Origin: Alphaproteobacteria bacterium
GTDB taxonomy: Bacteria; Pseudomonadota; Alphaproteobacteria; UBA9219
DNA length: 47,266 nucleotides
Direction of reading: 5' to 3'
NCBI GenBank assembly: GCA_028692635.1
Contig: JAQUWX010000009.1
Coordinates: 1 to 47,266, forward strand
Part shown: in pieces, positions 1,696-16,270 of the stretch
Numbering within the stretch: the first letter of the stretch is position 1
Layout of the letters: each line of letters opens with the position of its first letter
Translations under genes and position numbers: made by a program
Notes under the pieces: generated by a model
Databases searched by the model: none
Seen by the model: only the letters and a program-made list of their open reading frames with translations
Told to the model about the DNA's origin: nothing

Positions 1696-3246
1696 TCACT
1701 CTTTTCTGGTGAGCATGTTTAGGGCTTCGCGCCAGCGCATCGCTTTGGTTAGTTGCAGTAACAGCGCGTAGGCAAAGCCGGATGAGCCGATTATCAGCAT
1801 AAGCCCCAATATCCTGCTCCATACGTTGCCGGGGGCAAAGCGTTCTTCGAACATGTTTACCGTGGCTATTACGACGACGCCCATGCCGGCGGCGCTTAAT
1901 AGCATGCGCTTGGCGCGGAACCAGAATTGCTCGTCGCCTATGTGGCCGCGCTCTTTGCGGATGTATATGAAAAGGACTATGGCGTTCGTCCAGGTCGCTA
2001 TGCTGTTCGCAAGAGCTATTCCGATGTGCTGTAACGGGAAAAGCAGGGCTATTGCGAATACTACGTTCACGACCATTGCCAGTATGGCAATCTTGACCGG
2101 AGTTCTTGTGTCCTGACGGGCGAAAAAGTCGGCGCTTAAAACTTTCACTAAAAGAAAGGCCGGGACTCCAAGCGCGTAAGCCATTAGCGCTTTGGCCGTT
2201 TCAACCGAATCCACGTGGCTGAATTCTCCGTGTTCGAAAAGCGTTTGGATTATAGGCTGCGCGGCGAATATCAATCCCACGGTGGCGGGAAGGCCCAGCA
2301 TCAGGCAGAATTCAATGGAACGGCTCATGTAATGGCGGATCATGCGCTCGTTGCCGGTCGCGACATAGCGTGACAATAGCGGCAGAAGCGTGGTTGCTAC
2401 TGCAATTCCGACGATGCCAAGCGGTAGCTGGTTCAATCTGTCGGCGTAGAACAGGAATGAGACTGCGCCAGTCGGCAATGTCGAGGCCAGCACTGTAGAG
2501 ATAAACAGGTTTATTTGCGTGGCTCCGGCGCCTATTGCTCCCGGTCCTACCTGCTTGAACAGGAGGCAGGCTCGCTTGCCAAATTTAGGGAGGATTAGGG
2601 GTATCGACGCTCCTGCTTTGCGGCAGCTCCATGATAGCCACAGCATCTGGACGACTCCCGATAACGTCATCGCCCATGAAAGAGTTTTGCCAACTTCAAG
2701 ATCCAGCCATTTAGATAAAACAAGCGCGGATATCATTATGATGTTCAGCGCGATCGGAGTTGCCGCCGCCGGACCGAAAATTCCTCGTGCGTTTAGCACT
2801 CCGCCTTGCAGGGCTGTTACGGATATTAAAACCAGATAGGGGAAGGTTATGCGTCCGAACTCTACCGCAAACGCGTATTTTTCAGGATCGTCGTGAAAGC
2901 CGGGGGCCAGCACTCGGATGGCAAGCGGCATGAAAATTATGACCAAAATCGAAAACGGGATAAGGATAAGCAGCAAAAGAGCCAGGGCTTCAGCCGCAAA
3001 CGTTTGCGCCGCATTGTGGCCGTTCTTTTCTTCCTCGGCGCTGTATAGCGGGACAAACGCCGCCGAAAACGCCCCTTCGGCAAAGAGACTGCGAAATAAA
3101 TTCGGGAGACGCTGCGCTACAAAATATGCGTCAGCTATCGGACCGGCGCCGAGCAGCATTGCTGTCAACGTGTCGCGTATGAACCCGCCTATGCGGCTTA
3201 CAATCGTCAGGCCACTTACGGTGAAGAGAGATCGCGCAAAAGTCAT
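1696..3246 (-). CDS. murJ: Lipid II flippase MurJ (MviN)
   Basis: MurJ flips the peptidoglycan precursor lipid II across the inner membrane. The 516-residue protein starts MTFARSLFTVSGLTIVSRIGGFIRDTLTA, the characteristic MurJ N-terminus, and contains the DAYFVAQRLPNLFRSLFAEGAFSAAFVPLY stretch that defines the family. About 14 hydrophobic segments follow, with the usual YADRLNQLPLGIVGIAVATTLLPLLSR motif and the RQDTRTPVKIA segment. It is an MOP-superfamily exporter of normal length. It lies 3 bp downstream of the prepilin peptidase on the same strand, so the two are probably cotranscribed. Confidence 0.96.
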   Translation of the reverse strand: MTFARSLFTVSGLTIVSRIGGFIRDTLTAMLLGAGPIADAYFVAQRLPNLFRSLFAEGAFSAAFVPLYSAEEEKNGHNAAQTFAAEALALLLLILIPFSILVIIFMPLAIRVLAPGFHDDPEKYAFAVEFGRITFPYLVLISVTALQGGVLNARGIFGPAAATPIALNIIMISALVLSKWLDLEVGKTLSWAMTLSGVVQMLWLSWSCRKAGASIPLILPKFGKRACLLFKQVGPGAIGAGATQINLFISTVLASTLPTGAVSFLFYADRLNQLPLGIVGIAVATTLLPLLSRYVATGNERMIRHYMSRSIEFCLMLGLPATVGLIFAAQPIIQTLFEHGEFSHVDSVETAKALMAYALGVPAFLLVKVLSADFFARQDTRTPVKIAILAMVVNVVFAIALLFPLQHIGIALANSIATWTNAIVLFIYIRKERGHIGDEQFWFRAKRMLLSAAGMGVVVIATVNMFEERFAPGNVWSRILGLMLIIGSSGFAYALLLQLTKAMRWREALNMLTRKE

Positions 3247-3249
3247 ATG

Positions 3250-4011
3250 CTAATATAGCGCATAAAACACGCATGCTGCCAGTGACAAACACAGCGCCGG
3301 AGCAAACGGAAACTCTTTATCTCCGCCTTTTAATTGCCAGATAACGCCTATGGCCGCGCCGCTTACCCCAGCCGTTACGAAAAACCATGGGATGAGTTCT
3401 ATCGGTAGCCACAACCCCGCCGCTGCAAAAAACTTTACGTCGCCCATTCCCAGCATATCGCGGCCTCGGAGCTTGCTGTATCCCACAGCCAGAAGTATGC
3501 CAAAGAGCAATAATCCTGCGCTGTTTATGAGCGCCATGAACAGATCTCCGTCGCCTGTCATGATCCAGATCAGGCCAAGCGCTGCCAGCATTCCGTTCAG
3601 AGTGTCCGGGATTATGCCAAAAGCCAGGTCTATGCTGGCAATGGCTGGGAGCAGCCCTATGCCCAGGCAAAGCGGAATGATCGATACGTCCCATCCGGTT
3701 AACGCGACTACTGTCATTCCCATGAGAAATCCGATGAACTCAGTCAGCGGTAATAGCCACAGGCCCTTGCGATCGCCGCAGGGGCAGGGAAGTGCGCGGG
3801 CGTTCTTTCTTAGCAGCCAGCCGAAGAATGGGAATGCTTCATGCCACTCTAAGGGACGCATGCAGAATAGGCACTGCGGCATCATGCTCTCTCCGGGAAG
3901 GCGCTCCGCGGAGCGGGTTCCAAAATGGCAGGCCAGGCCAGCGCTGGCTAAGCCGAGCGCTCCGCCAGCGAGATATTCCAAGATCAGATATAAAATATTT
4001 TCATAGTCCAT
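3250..4011 (-). CDS. Prepilin peptidase (A24 family, PilD/GspO-like)
   Basis: An integral-membrane aspartic protease that cleaves and may N-methylate type IV prepilins or type II secretion pseudopilins. Two catalytic aspartates are visible: D128 in SIDLAFGIIPD and D191 in GMGDVK. The cytoplasmic loop has four cysteines (C47, C50, C76, C78), the zinc ribbon of bifunctional peptidase-methylases, although the second pair is CxC rather than CxxC. Length is 253 residues, with about seven hydrophobic segments. No pilin genes are in the window. The ATG has no Shine-Dalgarno and sits only 13 bp after a strong hairpin (4024-4057), so initiation may be weak or regulated. The next in-frame methionines (MMPQ, about residue 43) would remove the first membrane helix. 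Confidence 0.88.
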   Translation of the reverse strand: MDYENILYLILEYLAGGALGLASAGLACHFGTRSAERLPGESMMPQCLFCMRPLEWHEAFPFFGWLLRKNARALPCPCGDRKGLWLLPLTEFIGFLMGMTVVALTGWDVSIIPLCLGIGLLPAIASIDLAFGIIPDTLNGMLAALGLIWIMTGDGDLFMALINSAGLLLFGILLAVGYSKLRGRDMLGMGDVKFFAAAGLWLPIELIPWFFVTAGVSGAAIGVIWQLKGGDKEFPFAPALCLSLAACVFYALY

Positions 4012-4012
4012 G

Positions 4013-4058
4013 GCAAAAACACTTCGGCTCGAATAGGGTGCGCCCTATTCGAGCCGAG
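4013..4058 (-). terminator. Terminator-like hairpin immediately before the prepilin peptidase start
   Basis: A perfect 15-bp stem (4024-4038 with 4043-4057, loop TGCG or its complement) is followed on the minus strand by GTG and five T (4015-4019), only a few bases before the ATG at 4011. It would end transcription of the two small upstream minus-strand genes, or act as an attenuator for the prepilin peptidase-murJ pair. Confidence 0.8.
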
Positions 4059-4085
4059 ATTTGCGAAAAGCGCAATAGCGGTTTT

Positions 4086-4364
4086 TTAAAGGGTAAGCGC
4101 TTTGTGAGTCGGCTTTCCTGCTTTTTGCGTAGGAACGATAGGGGTAGGCTCGTCATTTTTAGAGCCTTGCTGCATAGCAGCCTTGATTACCTCTATAGAT
4201 TCCAAAGCGGGGTTTCCAAAATCTTTTATAAGACTTTTCAGAATCTCCTCTGAATGGTGCTTTAAAATATCAGGATTAAGCATGCCCTTGTTTAATCCAA
4301 GGCGGGAAGCGGTTTGCATCGCGTTATTGACCAAAAGGTCATAGTCGTTCATCGCGTTATTCAT
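4086..4364 (-). CDS. Hypothetical protein, 92 residues
   Basis: I do not recognise this protein. It is soluble in appearance and predominantly helical (MQTASRLGLNKG, HHSEEILKSLIKDFG, ALESIEVIKAAMQQG), with a proline/threonine/lysine-rich tail. Its start overlaps the stop of the upstream minus-strand gene by 8 bp, which is good evidence that it is a translated partner in a two-gene operon. A terminator-like hairpin follows at 4024-4057. Confidence 0.6.
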   Translation of the reverse strand: MNNAMNDYDLLVNNAMQTASRLGLNKGMLNPDILKHHSEEILKSLIKDFGNPALESIEVIKAAMQQGSKNDEPTPIVPTQKAGKPTHKALTL

Positions 4365-7433: not shown

Positions 7434-7925
7434 ATGACTGATAAAAAAAATGCAGATCGTTTGAAGGCTCAGCGCTATGTCGCTATGAATCGTCGCGCTC
7501 GTCACGACTATTTCATAACCGATACTATAGAAGCTGGAATCATGCTCTCTGGGACCGAGGTTAAGTCTCTTCGGCTCGGGCAGGCCAGTATTCAGGAAGC
7601 TTTCGCGAGCGCTAAAAACGACGATATGGTTCTTTTGAACGCCTACATACCGGAGTACCAGCAGGCCGGCGCTCATTTGCAGCACGAGACTCACCGTGCG
7701 AGAAAACTACTCCTTCATGCGCGAGAGATAAAAAGACTCGTCGGGCTTATCAAGCGCGAGGGGGTAACGCTGGTTCCTTTGGGAATTTATTTCAACAAAC
7801 GCGGCATAGCCAAGGTTGAACTGGCTGTAGCAAAAGGCAAACGTCAGATCGATAAGCGCGAAGCTATCAAGGCCAGAGATTGGGACCGGGATAAGGCCAG
7901 AATTTTGCGGAACAATAACAGATAG
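7434..7925 (+). CDS. smpB: SsrA-binding protein SmpB
   Basis: SmpB binds tmRNA and brings it to stalled ribosomes for trans-translation. Family motifs are [52 protein letters not shown], and [34 protein letters not shown]. Length is 163 residues, normal for alphaproteobacteria. The ATG has little Shine-Dalgarno complementarity upstream. In many relatives dapA lies between the transglycosylase gene and smpB; it is absent here and the two genes are divergent. The tmRNA gene is not in the window. Confidence 0.96.
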
Positions 7926-7938
7926 TTTTTTTTGCTGC

Positions 7939-9126
7939 TTAGCGTGCGTCCGCTTTTGCAATAAAGTTTGTTCCTTTATTGAGGATGTTTAAATATTCGT
8001 GGTAAGCAAAAACCTTGTTTCTTTCCTTGCCCGTAATTTCTTTGATAATCCCGAGCGATGAGAGCGTGGCAAGCGATCGCAGTACAGTTTGCAACGAAAT
8101 ATTGCAAGCATTCTTGATTTTTGTGGTGTTCGCCACAGGGTGTTTTTGAAAATAGCTGTGAATGGCAAGAACGGTCGTTGTTGATTTGCCGGACTCTTCT
8201 ATTGCGGTCCTGTCTTTATTAAAGCGCGACAATATGTCATGCGCGGTTTCCGTCGCTTGATTTGCCGTTTCTGAAACTCCAGTCAGGAAAAATTTAATCC
8301 ACGATTCCCAATCGCCAGTTTCGCGCACAGATTGCAAAAGATCGTAATATGTCTGTCGGTTAGCTTTTAGATAAAGGCTTAGATAAAGCAATGGCTCTTT
8401 CAGAATTCCTTCGACGCACAGTATGAATGTTATCAATAAACGGCCCAAACGACCGTTGCCATCCAGAAAGGGATGGATGGTTTCAAACTGAACGTGCGCT
8501 AGCGCGGCTCTAATTAAGGACGGCAGTATAACTTTATCGTCATGGAGAAATTTTTCGAAAGCGTCGAGAGCTTCCATCAAGCGCTCTGGTGGAGGCGGGA
8601 CAAAACGAGCATTGCCAGGGCGTGAGCCTCCTATCCAATTTTGCGATGTGCGAAACTCACCGGGCATTTTGTGCCCTCCACGCGCATTGTTCATAAGCTT
8701 GGCATGTATTTCGCGCAAAAGACGCAAGGATAAAGGAAGCTCTTTTAGTCGTTCTAGCCCGTAGTCCATCGCCGCAACGTAATTAGAGACTTCGGTTACG
8801 TCATCTATTGGCGTGCTGGGAACCTCATCCGTTTCAAACAAGAGTAAATCTGACAATGAAGATTGAGTCCCCTCAATTTGAGACGACAGAACGGCTTCCT
8901 TGCGCACATACATGTACAGAAAAAGCGAAGGGTCAGGTATAAGCATGCTCATGCCATCCAGACGGCCAAGAGCTGTATTAGCCTTATCGAGTAGAGGATA
9001 GAGTTCGTCCATTGCAAGCGGAGGATTGGGGGGGAGTTTTTGAGGCATATAGGCGCTGTAAGTTTCCTCGCCTGCGGGTATGCCTTTTACATATTGACCT
9101 ATTCTATTTCTATTTTGTGATTTCAT
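7939..9126 (-). CDS. Fic-domain AMP-transferase with N-terminal inhibitory helix and C-terminal HTH
   Basis: Fic enzymes transfer AMP or another nucleotide moiety onto hydroxyls of target proteins. From the start at 9126 (MKSQNRN, 395 residues) the catalytic motif HPFLDGNGRLGR spans about residues 218-229 with the histidine intact. SSQIEG at 81-86 matches the class II inhibitory helix [S/T]xxxE[G/N], placing the autoinhibitory glutamate at E85. The last 90 residues look like a winged helix-turn-helix (NTTKIKNACNISLQTVLRSLATLSSLGIIKE). An unbroken frame continues to 9231, but it lacks another methionine and runs through palindromic promoter DNA. The gene is next to alr but convergent with smpB, and looks like an accessory insertion. 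Confidence 0.9.
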   Translation of the reverse strand: MKSQNRNRIGQYVKGIPAGEETYSAYMPQKLPPNPPLAMDELYPLLDKANTALGRLDGMSMLIPDPSLFLYMYVRKEAVLSSQIEGTQSSLSDLLLFETDEVPSTPIDDVTEVSNYVAAMDYGLERLKELPLSLRLLREIHAKLMNNARGGHKMPGEFRTSQNWIGGSRPGNARFVPPPPERLMEALDAFEKFLHDDKVILPSLIRAALAHVQFETIHPFLDGNGRLGRLLITFILCVEGILKEPLLYLSLYLKANRQTYYDLLQSVRETGDWESWIKFFLTGVSETANQATETAHDILSRFNKDRTAIEESGKSTTTVLAIHSYFQKHPVANTTKIKNACNISLQTVLRSLATLSSLGIIKEITGKERNKVFAYHEYLNILNKGTNFIAKADAR

Positions 9127-9141
9127 GGTGTTTACCCCAAG

Positions 9142-9177
9142 CCCAACTTCCAAAAACACCCATTTTTGGAAGTTGGG
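9142..9177. promoter_or_regulatory. Perfect 15-bp palindrome upstream of fic
   Basis: CCCAACTTCCAAAAA (9142-9156) and TTTTTGGAAGTTGGG (9163-9177) form a perfect inverted repeat with a six-base spacer. It begins 16 bases upstream of the Fic start codon. Since the Fic protein carries an HTH domain, an autoregulatory operator is the simplest reading. Confidence 0.7.
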
Positions 9178-9213
9178 TAAATATAACTTACATCGATGGA
9201 ACTTACAAGAAAA

Positions 9214-9245
9214 TAACTTCCAAAAACCCATTAATATGGAAGTTA
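9214..9245. promoter_or_regulatory. Second, related inverted repeat upstream of fic
   Basis: TAACTTCC (9214-9221) and GGAAGTTA (9238-9245) are inverted with a 16-base spacer. The left side continues as AACTTCCAAAAACCCA, nearly repeating the half-site of the palindrome at 9142-9177, which suggests two operator sites for one regulator. Confidence 0.55.
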
Positions 9246-11966: not shown

Positions 11967-13979
11967 ATGGAGGGGGCTGCTCCTAGAAAAATGCAGCCTA
12001 CCCCAGCCACTTCGGCTGTGTTCTCTGCTGCGGGCAAAGAAACCCTCCAATCCACCGGCGCCGTTTCCGGCATTTCTCCAAAACTCGATGAAGTAGCTCA
12101 GATCTTTAAGGCGACCAAAGAATCGTCGCGGGTAGGATTTAGATTTTCGTCCGGGTATATCGCCAAGAAAGCGGGCGGATATGAGCCTTACATAAGAGAG
12201 GCTTTCGAGCTTCTGGAAGAAAACAAAGAAGTCTTGACCAATTATTATCGGGAAAAAATCGGATATAGCGGCGACGATATAATAGGCGATTATTATAATC
12301 CTCTCGCGACTATGGTCGCTGGGATGGGGCTGGATAAGGGAGATGCAGATGGCGTTCGTAAAAAAGCCAGGCATTTCTACACGGTCAGGGAAATAACTTC
12401 CAGAAATGCAGATAAAAACAAAAAAGACCAAAGCGTCTCCGTTCTCTCTTCCGTTCTAAGCGATCTTATGCTTGTGGGGGCGATGACTACGGAAGATGTA
12501 AAGGAAAAATTCGGCAGCAATGTAGCCCATCGGACCAGGCAGATAAGCTCTATAACTCAAGTTCCGATCACCATGAGGCCGTATGATAAGAATGGTCGTT
12601 GGTTGAAAAGGGATTATAAGTTCAATCTCATCCAACACGATCTTGGACAGGATATCATTCATTCGTCCGACAATCAGGCCGTTGTCTGGTTTGTGAAAAT
12701 GGTGTCGTCGCTGCAACAGGCTCGCGTCATGAATAAGGATCAGGAAAAAGATCCTAGGTTCTTTTCCGAGAGTGTGCGCCTTGAGACTAATTCAAAAAGG
12801 ATAATGCGGGCGCTTCACATAAAAGGCATGTATTTACCTGTAGCCAGGGAAATGGGTTCGCCTTTTTATGAGGAGATGCAGGACCTCCTGGTTAAGATAA
12901 TCGATCCTTGCGCATACCGCGCCATCAAAAACAAACTGGCTTCTTTGGGGGCGACAGTAGGTCTCGATGGGGAGATGCGCCCAAGCAATATTATGGGAAA
13001 GATAAAAAACAACATAAATAAACTGCTGTCCAACTATGGATTCAAATACAGAATAGAGGGGCGCGTTAAATCCGTTTTCTCGATATGGCAGAAGATGATG
13101 GATAAGCAGAACGCGAATAAATCGCAGGTGAGGGTTACTTTGGGTTCAGCTCAGAATCTGTCTGTTTTTAACAAAAAATTTAATAAAGGCGTGCGCGACG
13201 CCTTTGCTTTGCGGGCGATCATAGACGATCCAGATGAAAATTCGTGCAAGGTCATGTATGACAGGCTTGCGGAAGATGTCAGCGCAGACAAAAAGAGCGG
13301 TATATCCTTCATCAAGGGACGTCATAAAAACTATTTGGGAGATAATAAGAAAGATACTGGATACAAGGCTATACATGACTGCATGCATATTAATGGAAGA
13401 TGCGTTGAGCTTCAGGTCGTGACAGAGAATATGCACGATGACAATAGCAGCGGCATTACCAGACATGCCGCTCATAAAGGGGAAAACAATAAACTGGATT
13501 CCACAATAACGGTGCACAAAACCTGGAGCGCTCCCAGCACGCACGATCCTAATGAACATGCGGAGATAATGGACGGAGTGCTGTGTAATATGTTCGCTCT
13601 GCTTCAAGGGCAAAAAGTTGTTCACCTGCCTAAGGCTTACGATGTTGTATATGTTTGCGGCAACGATGAACGGTCGGGCATATTGTGCAGAGTTCCTAAT
13701 AATACCAAGGCAAAAGATTTGTTAAAATATGTGAAATATCGTGATTTGATAAATGATGACGGCAGTTTCAAAGATTTAAACAAAATTCTTTATGTGAACG
13801 ATGTCGTCGTTAATGGAAAATCTTATGCGGAAGAAGATACAGAAAATGTTACGCTGAAAAATGGAGACAGTTTCAGGATTGTGTATGCGCAACCTCCGGT
13901 AAAATATGCTCTTCGTTCTGTAAGCGCGCAGCCCGGATCGAGCGCAAAAACAAGCGCGAGCGTGGCTTGTGGCCCTTAG
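11967..13979 (+). CDS. Divergent RelA/SpoT paralogue with degenerate hydrolase domain
   Basis: A 670-residue protein with the order HD-like, synthetase, TGS. In the HD-like part the HD pair is S165-D166 (VLSDLM in place of LLHDTV), and the second metal aspartate is S247 (VKMVSSLQ in place of IKLADRLH). Hydrolysis of ppGpp is therefore probably lost. The synthetase keeps key positions: RIEGRVKSVFSIWQKM at about 362-377, D411 in RDAFALR, GRHKNY (the RxKD loop with D changed to N) at 451-456, GYKAIH at 465-470 and E481 in ELQVVT (R lost). A TGS-like domain follows at about 559-642; the zinc-finger and ACT domains of the neighbour are absent. The reading frame is intact and A-rich compared with rsh. 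It may be a synthetase, a regulator, or an inactive partner. Confidence 0.85.
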   Translation: MEGAAPRKMQPTPATSAVFSAAGKETLQSTGAVSGISPKLDEVAQIFKATKESSRVGFRFSSGYIAKKAGGYEPYIREAFELLEENKEVLTNYYREKIGYSGDDIIGDYYNPLATMVAGMGLDKGDADGVRKKARHFYTVREITSRNADKNKKDQSVSVLSSVLSDLMLVGAMTTEDVKEKFGSNVAHRTRQISSITQVPITMRPYDKNGRWLKRDYKFNLIQHDLGQDIIHSSDNQAVVWFVKMVSSLQQARVMNKDQEKDPRFFSESVRLETNSKRIMRALHIKGMYLPVAREMGSPFYEEMQDLLVKIIDPCAYRAIKNKLASLGATVGLDGEMRPSNIMGKIKNNINKLLSNYGFKYRIEGRVKSVFSIWQKMMDKQNANKSQVRVTLGSAQNLSVFNKKFNKGVRDAFALRAIIDDPDENSCKVMYDRLAEDVSADKKSGISFIKGRHKNYLGDNKKDTGYKAIHDCMHINGRCVELQVVTENMHDDNSSGITRHAAHKGENNKLDSTITVHKTWSAPSTHDPNEHAEIMDGVLCNMFALLQGQKVVHLPKAYDVVYVCGNDERSGILCRVPNNTKAKDLLKYVKYRDLINDDGSFKDLNKILYVNDVVVNGKSYAEEDTENVTLKNGDSFRIVYAQPPVKYALRSVSAQPGSSAKTSASVACGP

Positions 13980-14071: not shown

Positions 14072-16270
14072 ATGCCAGAAACTCAGGTTCTGCCTCAGAC
14101 TAAGCCCAGACTTATGCGCCAGTATGAACTGGTCGAGAGAGTGCGGGCTTACGATCCTACGGCTGATGAGGATTTGCTTAACCGCGCTTATGTCTTTTCC
14201 ATGCAGGCTCATGGGGCGCAGGTAAGAGCTTCCGGCGATCCGTACTTCTCTCATCCTTTGGAGGTCGCTGGAATCCTGACCAGTATGAAGATGGATGCGA
14301 CTACCATCGCTACGGCGCTGCTTCACGATACGGTCGAGGATACTCTCGCTACGTTGGACGATATTGAAAAGCTGTTCGGGCCGGAGGTCGTTCGGCTTGT
14401 CGATGGCGTCACCAAATTATCTCGCATAGAGTTTCAGAACGATCAGGCCAAGCAGGCGGAAAATTTCCGTAAGTTAGTGCTGGCTATGTCCGAGGATATT
14501 CGCGTTCTGCTTATAAAGCTGGCGGATCGTCTTCATAATATGCGCACTTTGCATTATCTGAAGGACCCGGAAAAACGCAGAAGGATCGCTCGCGAGACTA
14601 TGGATATATATGCTCCTCTGGCGGAGCGTATCGGTATCGAGAAAATGCAGGACGAGTTGCAGGATCTCGCGTTCTCTGAGCTTAATCCTGACGCAAGATC
14701 GAGCATTATGACGCGGCTTGGCTATTTGCGTAGCGAAGGCGGCGGATTGGCTTCTAAGATACAGGAGGAGCTGCGCAAGGTGCTGTCTCAATCCGGCATA
14801 AATGCCGAGGTCGAGGGGCGCGAGAAAAATCCGTACTCTATTTGGCGCAAGATGAAGCGCAAGAATATCGCGTTCGAGCAATTGTCCGACATAATGGCTT
14901 TCAGGGTGACGGTTGACAATGTCGGCCAGTGTTATCAGGTGCTTGGCATTCTTCACAGTAATTATCCAGTCGTTCCCGGGCGATTTAAGGATTACATTTC
15001 CACTCCCAAGCCCAATCAATACCAAAGTTTACACACCGGAATAATAGGGCCGGAAAATCAGCGTATCGAGATTCAGATCAGAACCCATGAAATGCATGAG
15101 GTCGCAGAATTGGGCGTGGCTGCTCACTGGGCTTATAAGCAGGACGATCATCGCGCAGACGGATCTCAGTATCGGTGGTTGAGAGAGCTTCTCGATATCG
15201 TCGAGCACGCTCAAAGGCCGGAGGAATTTCTGGAACAGACTAAGCTTGAGTTGTTTCAGGATCAGGTTTTCTGTTTCTCTCCGAAAGGCGATTTGATCGC
15301 TTTGCCTCGTGGGGCTACTCCTGTCGATTTTGCTTATGCGGTGCACAGCCTTGTCGGGGACTCGTGCGTCGGCTCTAAGGTGAATGGGCGCATGGTTCCT
15401 TTGCGTACAGAGCTGCACAATGGCGATCAGGTCGAGATCGTTACTCAGAAGGGCGGCACTCCTTCTCCGGCTTGGGAGCGGTTCGTTGTAAGCGGCAAGG
15501 CCAGGGCCAGGATTCGCCGTTTCGTGCGCACTCAGCAGCGTACCGAATATATTATACTTGGTCGCGCTATGCTTGAGAAGCTTTGCAAACAGGAGGGTAT
15601 AGACTTCGGCGAAAAACCGTTCGAGGCCGTTGCGAAGAATTTTCAAGCGGCTTCGGTCGATGATCTTTTTGCCAATGTCGGCGCTTCGCTTCAACCGTCG
15701 CGGGATGTTTTTCATGCGGCGTTCCCTCAGCATAAATACAAGGTGCAGGAAAAAACTATCGCGGTGACTGAGCCGGGGATGAATATTCCAAAACCGCAGG
15801 CTCGGACTACGACGGCTCCTTTGACGCTTAAGGGGTTGATACCGGGAATGGCTGTTCATTTCGCTCGTTGCTGCCATCCGCTGCCCGGAGACGCCATTGT
15901 GGGCATAGTCGCTACCGGAAGGGGCGTTACTGTTCATACTCGCGATTGCGAGACGTTGGAGAGCTTTCGTGACGCTCCGGAGCGCTGGATAGATGTCGGA
16001 TGGGGCGACGGTTACGGCAAAGAAAGCTCTATGGTTGGGCGGCTTACCGTCATTCTGAATAATCAGCCTAACAGTTTGGGCGCGTTGACGACTATTATAG
16101 GAAAAGGAAACGGAAATATTATCAATCTTAAGATAACCAACCGCTCTACGGACTTTTTCGATATTCTTGTCGATGTCGAGGTTAAGGATGTTCCTCATCT
16201 TATGAATATTGTGGCGGCTCTTAGAGCTAGCGCTGCTATAAATTCAGTTGAGCGCACAAAGGGACGGTAA
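14072..16270 (+). CDS. spoT: Bifunctional (p)ppGpp synthetase/hydrolase (Rsh/SpoT)
   Basis: Makes and hydrolyses (p)ppGpp, the stringent-response alarmone. HD hydrolase: H61 in SHPLEV, HD at 85-86 in LLHDTVEDT and D152 in IKLADRLHNM. Synthetase: VEGREKNPYSIWRKM, D273 in LSDIMAFRV, RFKD at 304-307 (the RxKD motif of bifunctional enzymes) and E333 in RIEIQIRT. TGS domain at about 389-450 (VFCFSPKGDLIALPRGATPVDFAYAVH). A CC-containing zinc-finger segment HFARCCHPLPGD lies around residue 605, and an ACT domain ends the protein (LGALTTIIGKGNGNIINLKITN). 732 residues is normal. All residues needed for both activities are visible. Confidence 0.96.
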   Translation: MPETQVLPQTKPRLMRQYELVERVRAYDPTADEDLLNRAYVFSMQAHGAQVRASGDPYFSHPLEVAGILTSMKMDATTIATALLHDTVEDTLATLDDIEKLFGPEVVRLVDGVTKLSRIEFQNDQAKQAENFRKLVLAMSEDIRVLLIKLADRLHNMRTLHYLKDPEKRRRIARETMDIYAPLAERIGIEKMQDELQDLAFSELNPDARSSIMTRLGYLRSEGGGLASKIQEELRKVLSQSGINAEVEGREKNPYSIWRKMKRKNIAFEQLSDIMAFRVTVDNVGQCYQVLGILHSNYPVVPGRFKDYISTPKPNQYQSLHTGIIGPENQRIEIQIRTHEMHEVAELGVAAHWAYKQDDHRADGSQYRWLRELLDIVEHAQRPEEFLEQTKLELFQDQVFCFSPKGDLIALPRGATPVDFAYAVHSLVGDSCVGSKVNGRMVPLRTELHNGDQVEIVTQKGGTPSPAWERFVVSGKARARIRRFVRTQQRTEYIILGRAMLEKLCKQEGIDFGEKPFEAVAKNFQAASVDDLFANVGASLQPSRDVFHAAFPQHKYKVQEKTIAVTEPGMNIPKPQARTTTAPLTLKGLIPGMAVHFARCCHPLPGDAIVGIVATGRGVTVHTRDCETLESFRDAPERWIDVGWGDGYGKESSMVGRLTVILNNQPNSLGALTTIIGKGNGNIINLKITNRSTDFFDILVDVEVKDVPHLMNIVAALRASAAINSVERTKGR

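What the first reader, a model, noticed from the sequence alone, without database searches (positions are those of the whole stretch)
9126..9245. Fic enzyme with HTH domain and two AACTTCC operators
Seen: a perfect 15-bp palindrome (9142-9177) and a second inverted repeat (9214-9245) sharing AACTTCC half-sites lie upstream of a Fic gene whose protein carries both an inhibitory helix motif (SSQIEG, about 81-86) and a C-terminal HTH. Inference: self-repression coupled to the enzymatic state (AMP or target level), that is, a Fic protein that senses and regulates through one polypeptide.
Basis: partly seen in the sequence, partly recalled or inferred. Interest (0 to 1): 0.55.

Follow-up and report, generated by a model that had tools for sequence, protein, structure and literature searches.

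The report
Self-repressing Fic toxin with private operator
A protein-modifying toxin-like enzyme (a Fic protein of the SoFic anti-phage family) carries its own DNA-binding tail, and an array of six matched DNA sites around its promoter changes in step with that tail across species, so the enzyme very probably switches off its own gene.

Summary
A perfect 15-bp inverted repeat (9142-9177) and a second one (9214-9245) lie upstream of a Fic gene (7939-9126, minus strand). Its protein has the class II inhibitory motif SSQIEG (81-86), an intact HPFLDGNGRLGR and a C-terminal winged HTH. The two repeats occur nowhere else in the 1.87-Mb genome.

The anatomy is richer than reported: six half-sites (consensus TGGAAGTTA) at fixed spacings bracket and overlap a TTGTAA-N17-TATATT promoter. 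Most of the closest orthologs (66-78% identical, several phyla) have the same spacing and -35 but a different word (TGTTAGTTA, TGTTCGTTA), changed at nearly all half-sites together. Of 154 homologs, 49% have a strong array, against 0.3% of same-locus control segments. Array sequence tracks the HTH recognition helix, not the catalytic domain (partial Mantel r 0.22, p 0.001, versus 0.02). The window alone among 19 close orthologs has Gln, not Pro, at helix residue 346, coinciding with its TT-to-GA operator change. No other gene travels with fic. Self-repression is well supported.

Coupling of repression to AMP or target state is not shown. Autorepression by a class II Fic-HTH protein is already proven for Yersinia CccR; the multi-site array and a family-wide private operator code appear new.

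The parts
7939..9126 (-). fic: SoFic-like class II Fic protein with Fic_N, Fic and C-terminal winged HTH, 395 aa
   Evidence: Pfam Fic_N 5.5e-30 and Fic 9.4e-21; PADLOC SoFic 414 bits; AlphaFold model best match SoFic 3eqx/3zcn. Start at 9126 is supported by ortholog alignments, not the longer 9231 frame.
8869..8886 (-). inhibitory helix motif S81-S-Q-I-E85-G86
   Evidence: translation; motif present in all 155 homologs tested
8440..8475 (-). FIC catalytic motif H218-PFLDGNGRLG-R229
   Evidence: translation; intact in 153 of 155 homologs; the other two are unaligned there
8002..8175 (-). C-terminal winged HTH (about residues 318-375), recognition helix 345-357 (S344-L-Q346-T-V-L-R350)
   Evidence: sub-threshold HTH hits to FUR and HTH_24; AlphaFold helices 317-328, 334-341, 345-357 and strand 372-374
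9237..9245 (-). half-site h1 TAACTTCCA (reverse complement TGGAAGTTA)
9214..9222 (-). half-site h2 TGGAAGTTA, 23 bp from h1
9197..9205 (-). half-site h2' TAAGTTCCA (reverse complement TGGAACTTA), 17 bp from h2, overlaps the -35
   Evidence: own-genome pattern search, 1 mismatch; less conserved in orthologs
9203..9208 (-). -35-like TTGTAA
   Evidence: promoter scan, consensus match only; TTG at this position in 15 of 18 orthologs
9184..9192 (-). half-site h3 TGTAAGTTA, 30 bp from h2, overlaps the -10
9180..9185 (-). -10-like TATATT, 17 bp after the -35
9167..9175 (-). half-site h4 CAACTTCCA (reverse complement TGGAAGTTG), 17 bp from h3, at the expected transcription start
   Evidence: the start site is inferred
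9144..9152 (-). half-site h5 TGGAAGTTG, 23 bp from h4, ends 17 bp before the ATG

Best explanation
The gene encodes a SoFic-like class II Fic AMP-transferase that represses its own promoter with its C-terminal winged HTH. Dimers (inferred from SoFic, CccR and CbFic2) bind pairs of inverted TGGAAGTTA half-sites. One pair lies upstream of the -35, one covers the transcription start, and two further half-sites overlap the -35 and -10. Full occupancy blocks RNA polymerase, so the potentially toxic enzyme is kept scarce and its level is set by its own concentration. Shown here: the sites, their fixed architecture, their restriction to this promoter, and covariation of site sequence with the recognition helix. 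Shown for relatives in the literature: autorepression (CccR), dimerisation, and toxicity of leaky expression (Sofic). Inferred: binding and repression by this particular protein, cooperative multi-dimer occupancy, and a role in phage defence. Not shown: that nucleotide or target state changes repression.
For: A rigid 5-half-site template scores 42 of 45 in the window, against a maximum of 34 in 2000 dinucleotide shuffles. The same template fits most close orthologs with other words. Repeat periods 30/40 (close) and 31/41 (distant) and inverted gaps of 8-16 are enriched. A 3-half-site score of at least 21 occurs in 49% of 154 homolog upstreams against 0.3% of 616 GC-matched control segments from the same loci. 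Operator similarity follows the recognition helix after removing catalytic-domain identity (r 0.22, p 0.001; with the rest of the HTH also removed r 0.20), while catalytic identity adds nothing once the helix is known (r 0.02). Q346 is unique among 19 close orthologs (18 have Pro) and goes with TT to GA; L008 and L090 have Q/T at 345 and share the A to C change. The residue corresponding to 346 in IdeR, Pro39 of SxPTxxQ, contacts bases in crystal structures (PMC8464063). No gene other than fic is shared by the 15 loci compared. The array occurs only here in the genome. CccR autorepression is shown by lacZ fusion, EMSA, footprint and operator mutation.
Against: No binding or expression data exist for this protein. 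The Mantel effect is modest and phylogenetic non-independence is only partly controlled. About a third of the homologs, mostly those below 52% identity, show no array with this spacing, and a few close ones (L086, L089, L092) fit poorly. The window's Q346 change is one event. IdeR P39G still recognises its target, so residue 346 need not be the specificity switch.
Confidence: 0.87

Rival explanations
1. Self-repression is coupled to the enzymatic state: nucleotide binding or automodification moves the winged HTH, so ATP, AMP or target level sets DNA affinity, or operator DNA sets enzyme activity. (An extension of the best explanation rather than an alternative to it.)
For: The C-terminal domain of apo EcSofic is twisted relative to ATP-bound SoFic, and contacts between that domain and the catalytic domain are needed for toxicity (PMC12249575). 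CbFic2 is activated and dimerised by DNA through its HTH (PMC10628234). Catalytic and inhibitory motifs are intact in essentially all operator-bearing homologs, so the two functions are kept together.
Against: The CccR dimer-interface mutant lost repression while toxicity and AMPylation were only marginally affected, and its catalytic mutant H192A still repressed (PMC9755527). The CbFic2 effect was seen with random DNA. The apo/ATP comparison is between different species' proteins. Nothing in the window tests coupling.
Confidence: 0.3
2. An unrelated transcription factor binds the palindromes.
For: Palindromes alone do not name their protein; single HTH regulators elsewhere in the genome were not tested.
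Against: The word changes between orthologs at nearly all half-sites together and follows fic's own recognition helix. Loci in different phyla share only fic. The site is at no other promoter in this genome.
Confidence: 0.07
3. The 9142-9177 repeat acts as an RNA hairpin: a terminator of alr, or a leader structure hiding the fic ribosome site.
For: A transcript from about 9173 folds a 12-bp stem (-15.2 kcal/mol).
Against: Energy is only 1.6 sd below shuffles. There is no T-run, and no terminator was found. Orthologs keep half-site spacing but usually not a continuous stem, and the upstream repeat would lie outside the fic transcript.
Confidence: 0.04
4. Mobile-element termini or a dispersed genomic repeat.
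For: The gene is patchily distributed across phyla, so it is probably mobile.
Against: Single occurrence in the genome; conserved half-site spacing tied to the promoter across phyla.
Confidence: 0.01

Closest known systems
CccR of Yersinia pseudotuberculosis (class II Fic + C-terminal HTH autorepressor; PMC9755527)
   Same: Class II inhibitory motif before the FIC core, C-terminal HTH, inverted-repeat operator at its own promoter near -35 and -10, autorepression (proven there).
   Different: One pair of 10-bp boxes AGATAATCAT with a 26-bp spacer, against six 9-bp half-sites at 23/17/13/17/23 bp here. CccR is a type VI secreted effector; no secretion genes are seen directly beside this gene (alr and smpB flank it).
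SoFic (Shewanella SO_4266, PDB 3eqx/3zcn; E. coli H397 Sofic)
   Same: Best fold and sequence match; PADLOC SoFic profile 414 bits; dimeric class II Fic with a winged C-terminal domain; palindromic arrays also precede many SoFic-profile genes.
   Different: Below the NCBIfam SoFic equivalog cut-off (168 vs 550 bits); about 25% identity. The EcSofic paper treats the C-terminal domain as an activity regulator and does not mention DNA binding or an operator. EcSofic has a downstream AS1 antitoxin gene; here smpB follows, on the opposite strand.
CbFic2 of Coxiella burnetii (PDB 8cil; PMC10628234)
   Same: Class II Fic with C-terminal winged HTH that binds DNA and dimerises on it.
   Different: Studied with random DNA and histone targets; no cognate operator reported in that paper.
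Phd-Doc and FicA-FicT toxin-antitoxin modules (general knowledge)
   Same: Fido-fold toxin in a self-controlled module.
   Different: There the antitoxin is a separate protein in a two-gene operon; here enzyme, inhibitory helix and DNA-binding domain are one chain with no partner gene found.

Membership tests
Class II Fic proteins | FIC motif HPFx[D/E]GNGRxxR | tested here: met
   HPFLDGNGRLGR, residues 218-229
Class II Fic proteins | inhibitory motif (S/T)xxxE(G/N) N-terminal to the FIC core in the same chain | tested here: met
   SSQIEG 81-86
Class II Fic proteins | AMP-transferase activity held back by the inhibitory Glu | not testable with these tools
   needs an enzyme assay
SoFic anti-phage family | match to the family profile | tested here: inconclusive
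   PADLOC SoFic 414 bits, E 1.5e-124, but NCBIfam SoFic equivalog 168 bits, below its 550 cut-off
SoFic anti-phage family | same overall fold including C-terminal winged domain | tested here: met
   Foldseek 3eqx/3zcn E about 1e-15, TM 0.70-0.73 over the whole chain; model mean pLDDT 77
SoFic anti-phage family | protects against phage | not testable with these tools
   needs a plaque assay
CccR-type autorepressing Fic-HTH | C-terminal HTH in the same chain | tested here: met
CccR-type autorepressing Fic-HTH | inverted-repeat operator at own -35/-10 | tested here: met
CccR-type autorepressing Fic-HTH | same box sequence and 26-bp spacer as CccR | tested here: not met
   half-site TGGAAGTTA, spacings 23 and 17 bp start to start, versus AGATAATCAT-N26
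CccR-type autorepressing Fic-HTH | protein binds and represses its own promoter | not testable with these tools
   indirectly supported by operator-helix covariation
Two-gene toxin-antitoxin module | partner antitoxin gene conserved beside the toxin | tested here: not met
   no flanking gene shared by two or more of 15 close loci (ORFs of 60 aa or more only, so shorter partners are not excluded)

The most novel reading that the evidence does not exclude
The SoFic-like Fic family as a whole consists of one-gene self-regulating defence toxins. Each lineage carries a private multi-half-site operator co-evolving with its own recognition helix, and operator binding is linked through the ATP-responsive C-terminal domain to enzyme activity, so loss of repression and release of AMPylation are one switch during infection.
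Probability: 0.2. Interest if true: 0.8.

Novelty: new variant of a known kind. Interest (0 to 1): 0.5.

Why it matters
How class II Fic proteins such as SoFic are kept off in healthy cells is stated as open in the literature, and leaky expression is toxic (PMC12249575). A family-wide, dedicated operator gives a concrete answer that can be tested: the enzyme limits its own supply. Because the operator word diverges with the recognition helix, dozens of orthologous protein-DNA pairs form a natural specificity series and could be orthogonal repressors. It also generalises the single proven case, CccR, to a large mobile family.

Tried and rejected
RNA family or riboswitch in the leader: none. Terminator or hairpin role: weak energy, no T-run. 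Regulon beyond fic: pattern searches of the own genome with up to 3 mismatches gave only fic sites plus single 3-mismatch hits at C75 and C63, judged chance. Upstream ATG at 9231 (430-aa frame): rejected, orthologs start at 9126. A first free-spacing fit of distant homologs mis-registered half-sites and had little power; replaced by spacing profiles and the constrained 3-site fit. A rigid template missed close orthologs with 1-bp indels, so +/-1 tolerance was allowed. A possible second link at residue 346 (L147, L148, L151 with Thr346 and TTGGAATTT) is suggestive only: closely related sequences, one event. The paper searches gave no report of an operator for SoFic; the library is open-access only.

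Full report
On the minus strand, fic (7939-9126, 395 aa) lies 162 bp downstream of alr and is convergent with smpB. Upstream of its ATG are a perfect 15-bp inverted repeat (9142-9177) and a second repeat (9214-9245). AACTTCC-N16-GGAAGTT with up to two mismatches is found twice in the window against 0.10 expected. AACTTCC...GGAAGTT pairs occur nowhere else in the 1.87-Mb assembly. The protein has SSQIEG at 81-86, HPFLDGNGRLGR at 218-229 and a C-terminal winged HTH. Pfam finds Fic_N and Fic. PADLOC's SoFic profile matches at 414 bits, while NCBIfam's stricter SoFic equivalog is below cut-off. The AlphaFold model (mean pLDDT 77) matches Shewanella SoFic over the whole chain.

The anatomy is more than two palindromes. 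Read 5' to 3' on the fic strand it is TAACTTCCA (h1) -23- TGGAAGTTA (h2) -17- TAAGTTCCA (h2') -13- TGTAAGTTA (h3) -17- CAACTTCCA (h4) -23- TGGAAGTTG (h5); numbers are start-to-start distances. The only promoter-like site called, TTGTAA-N17-TATATT (9208-9180), sits between the two palindromes; h2' overlaps the -35, h3 overlaps the -10, and h4 lies at the expected start. The five-site template scores 42 of 45 in the window, against at most 34 in 2000 dinucleotide-preserving shuffles.

Relatives were decisive. Eighty homologous loci from bacterial genomes, 30 from the window's relatives and 70 from viral contigs were fetched. Among the orthologs 66-78% identical, from Alphaproteobacteria, Gammaproteobacteria, Deferribacterales and others, most keep the same spacing. 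Most also keep a TTG-type -35 sixteen bases before h3, but the word is TGTTAGTTA, or TGTTCGTTA/TGTACGTTA in L008 and L090. The word therefore changes at nearly all half-sites together while the geometry stays. Spacing profiles over 13 close and 59 distant upstream regions show direct-repeat periods of 30/40 and 31/41 bp far above shuffles. Scored with a three-half-site template, 49% of 154 homologs reach 21 or more, against 0.3% of 616 GC-matched segments from the same loci; 100 of 155 exceed the best of their own shuffles by two or more.

Which protein reads the sites? Words group with the recognition helix: SLPTVLRSL with TGTTAGTTA, S[AP]PTIAKS with AGAAAGGAT, SAPTVNAAL with CTTAAATAG, SLPTVGKSL with CTAAAGGAT. 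In a non-redundant set of 74, operator similarity correlates with recognition-helix identity after removing catalytic-domain identity (partial Mantel r 0.22, p 0.001). It still does after also removing the rest of the HTH (r 0.20, p 0.001). Catalytic identity adds nothing once the helix is known (r 0.02). At fixed catalytic identity of 70-80%, mean operator similarity rises from 0.50 to 0.73 with helix identity. In the window, residue 346 at the start of the helix is Gln, where all 18 close orthologs have Pro, matching the window's TT-to-GA change. In IdeR, which has the same SxPTxx(Q) layout, Ser37, Pro39, Thr40 and Gln43 contact bases. The authors argue for indirect readout and P39G still binds, so the residue-level reading stays a hypothesis (PMC8464063). 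No flanking ORF of 60 aa or more is shared by any two of the 15 close loci compared, so no neighbouring regulator accompanies the sites.

Extending to genes that match the SoFic profile, many have palindromic arrays with their own words, such as TGTATAGAAAA with SR[IL]TATKYLD helices and ACGTGTTAAA with TRQTA helices. This part is descriptive, with few shuffles.

Mechanism. The best reading is a one-gene autorepressor. Fic dimers bind paired inverted half-sites around and over the promoter and shut off transcription, keeping a potentially toxic AMP-transferase scarce. The precedent is CccR of Yersinia pseudotuberculosis, where lacZ fusion, EMSA, footprinting and operator mutation prove autorepression by a class II Fic-HTH protein (PMC9755527). 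For EcSofic, dimerisation is needed for toxicity, the apo C-terminal domain is twisted relative to the ATP-bound Shewanella protein, and full control of the off-state is described as unresolved (PMC12249575). In CbFic2, DNA binding drives dimerisation and changes activity (PMC10628234). These make coupling between enzyme state and DNA binding plausible.

Novelty. Autorepression by a class II Fic-HTH protein is known. The six-half-site array, its conservation across a mobile SoFic-like family and its co-variation with the recognition helix were not found in the papers searched. That makes this a new variant of a known kind.

Noticed in passing
window 11967-13979 (+): A 670-aa protein with a RelA_SpoT synthetase region (Pfam 7.7e-11) and no detected HD domain lies directly before an apparently complete rel/spoT gene (14072-16270); an additional or diverged alarmone synthase.
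   Followed up: partly
L115, L116 (IMG/VR contigs): Fic genes 74% identical to the window's lie on contigs classed as viral; L115 has the same five-half-site array, so gene and operator may travel on phages, or the contigs may be host DNA.
   Followed up: no
L147, L148, L151: Distant homologs with Thr instead of Pro at the position of residue 346 have half-site TTGGAATTT, which like the window's contains GGAA.
   Followed up: partly
L192-L213: SoFic-profile genes are often preceded by palindromic arrays with their own words (TGTATAGAAAA, ACGTGTTAAA, ATGTCGA).
   Followed up: partly
window 7434-9126: fic sits 13 bp from the end of smpB (convergent) and after alr; close homologs elsewhere share none of these neighbours, suggesting acquisition of a one-gene cassette.
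   Followed up: partly
L029 (Candidatus Paracaedibacter symbiosus): The 79%-identical fic appears split into two reading frames (3097-3825 and 3897-4160), a likely pseudogene.
   Followed up: no
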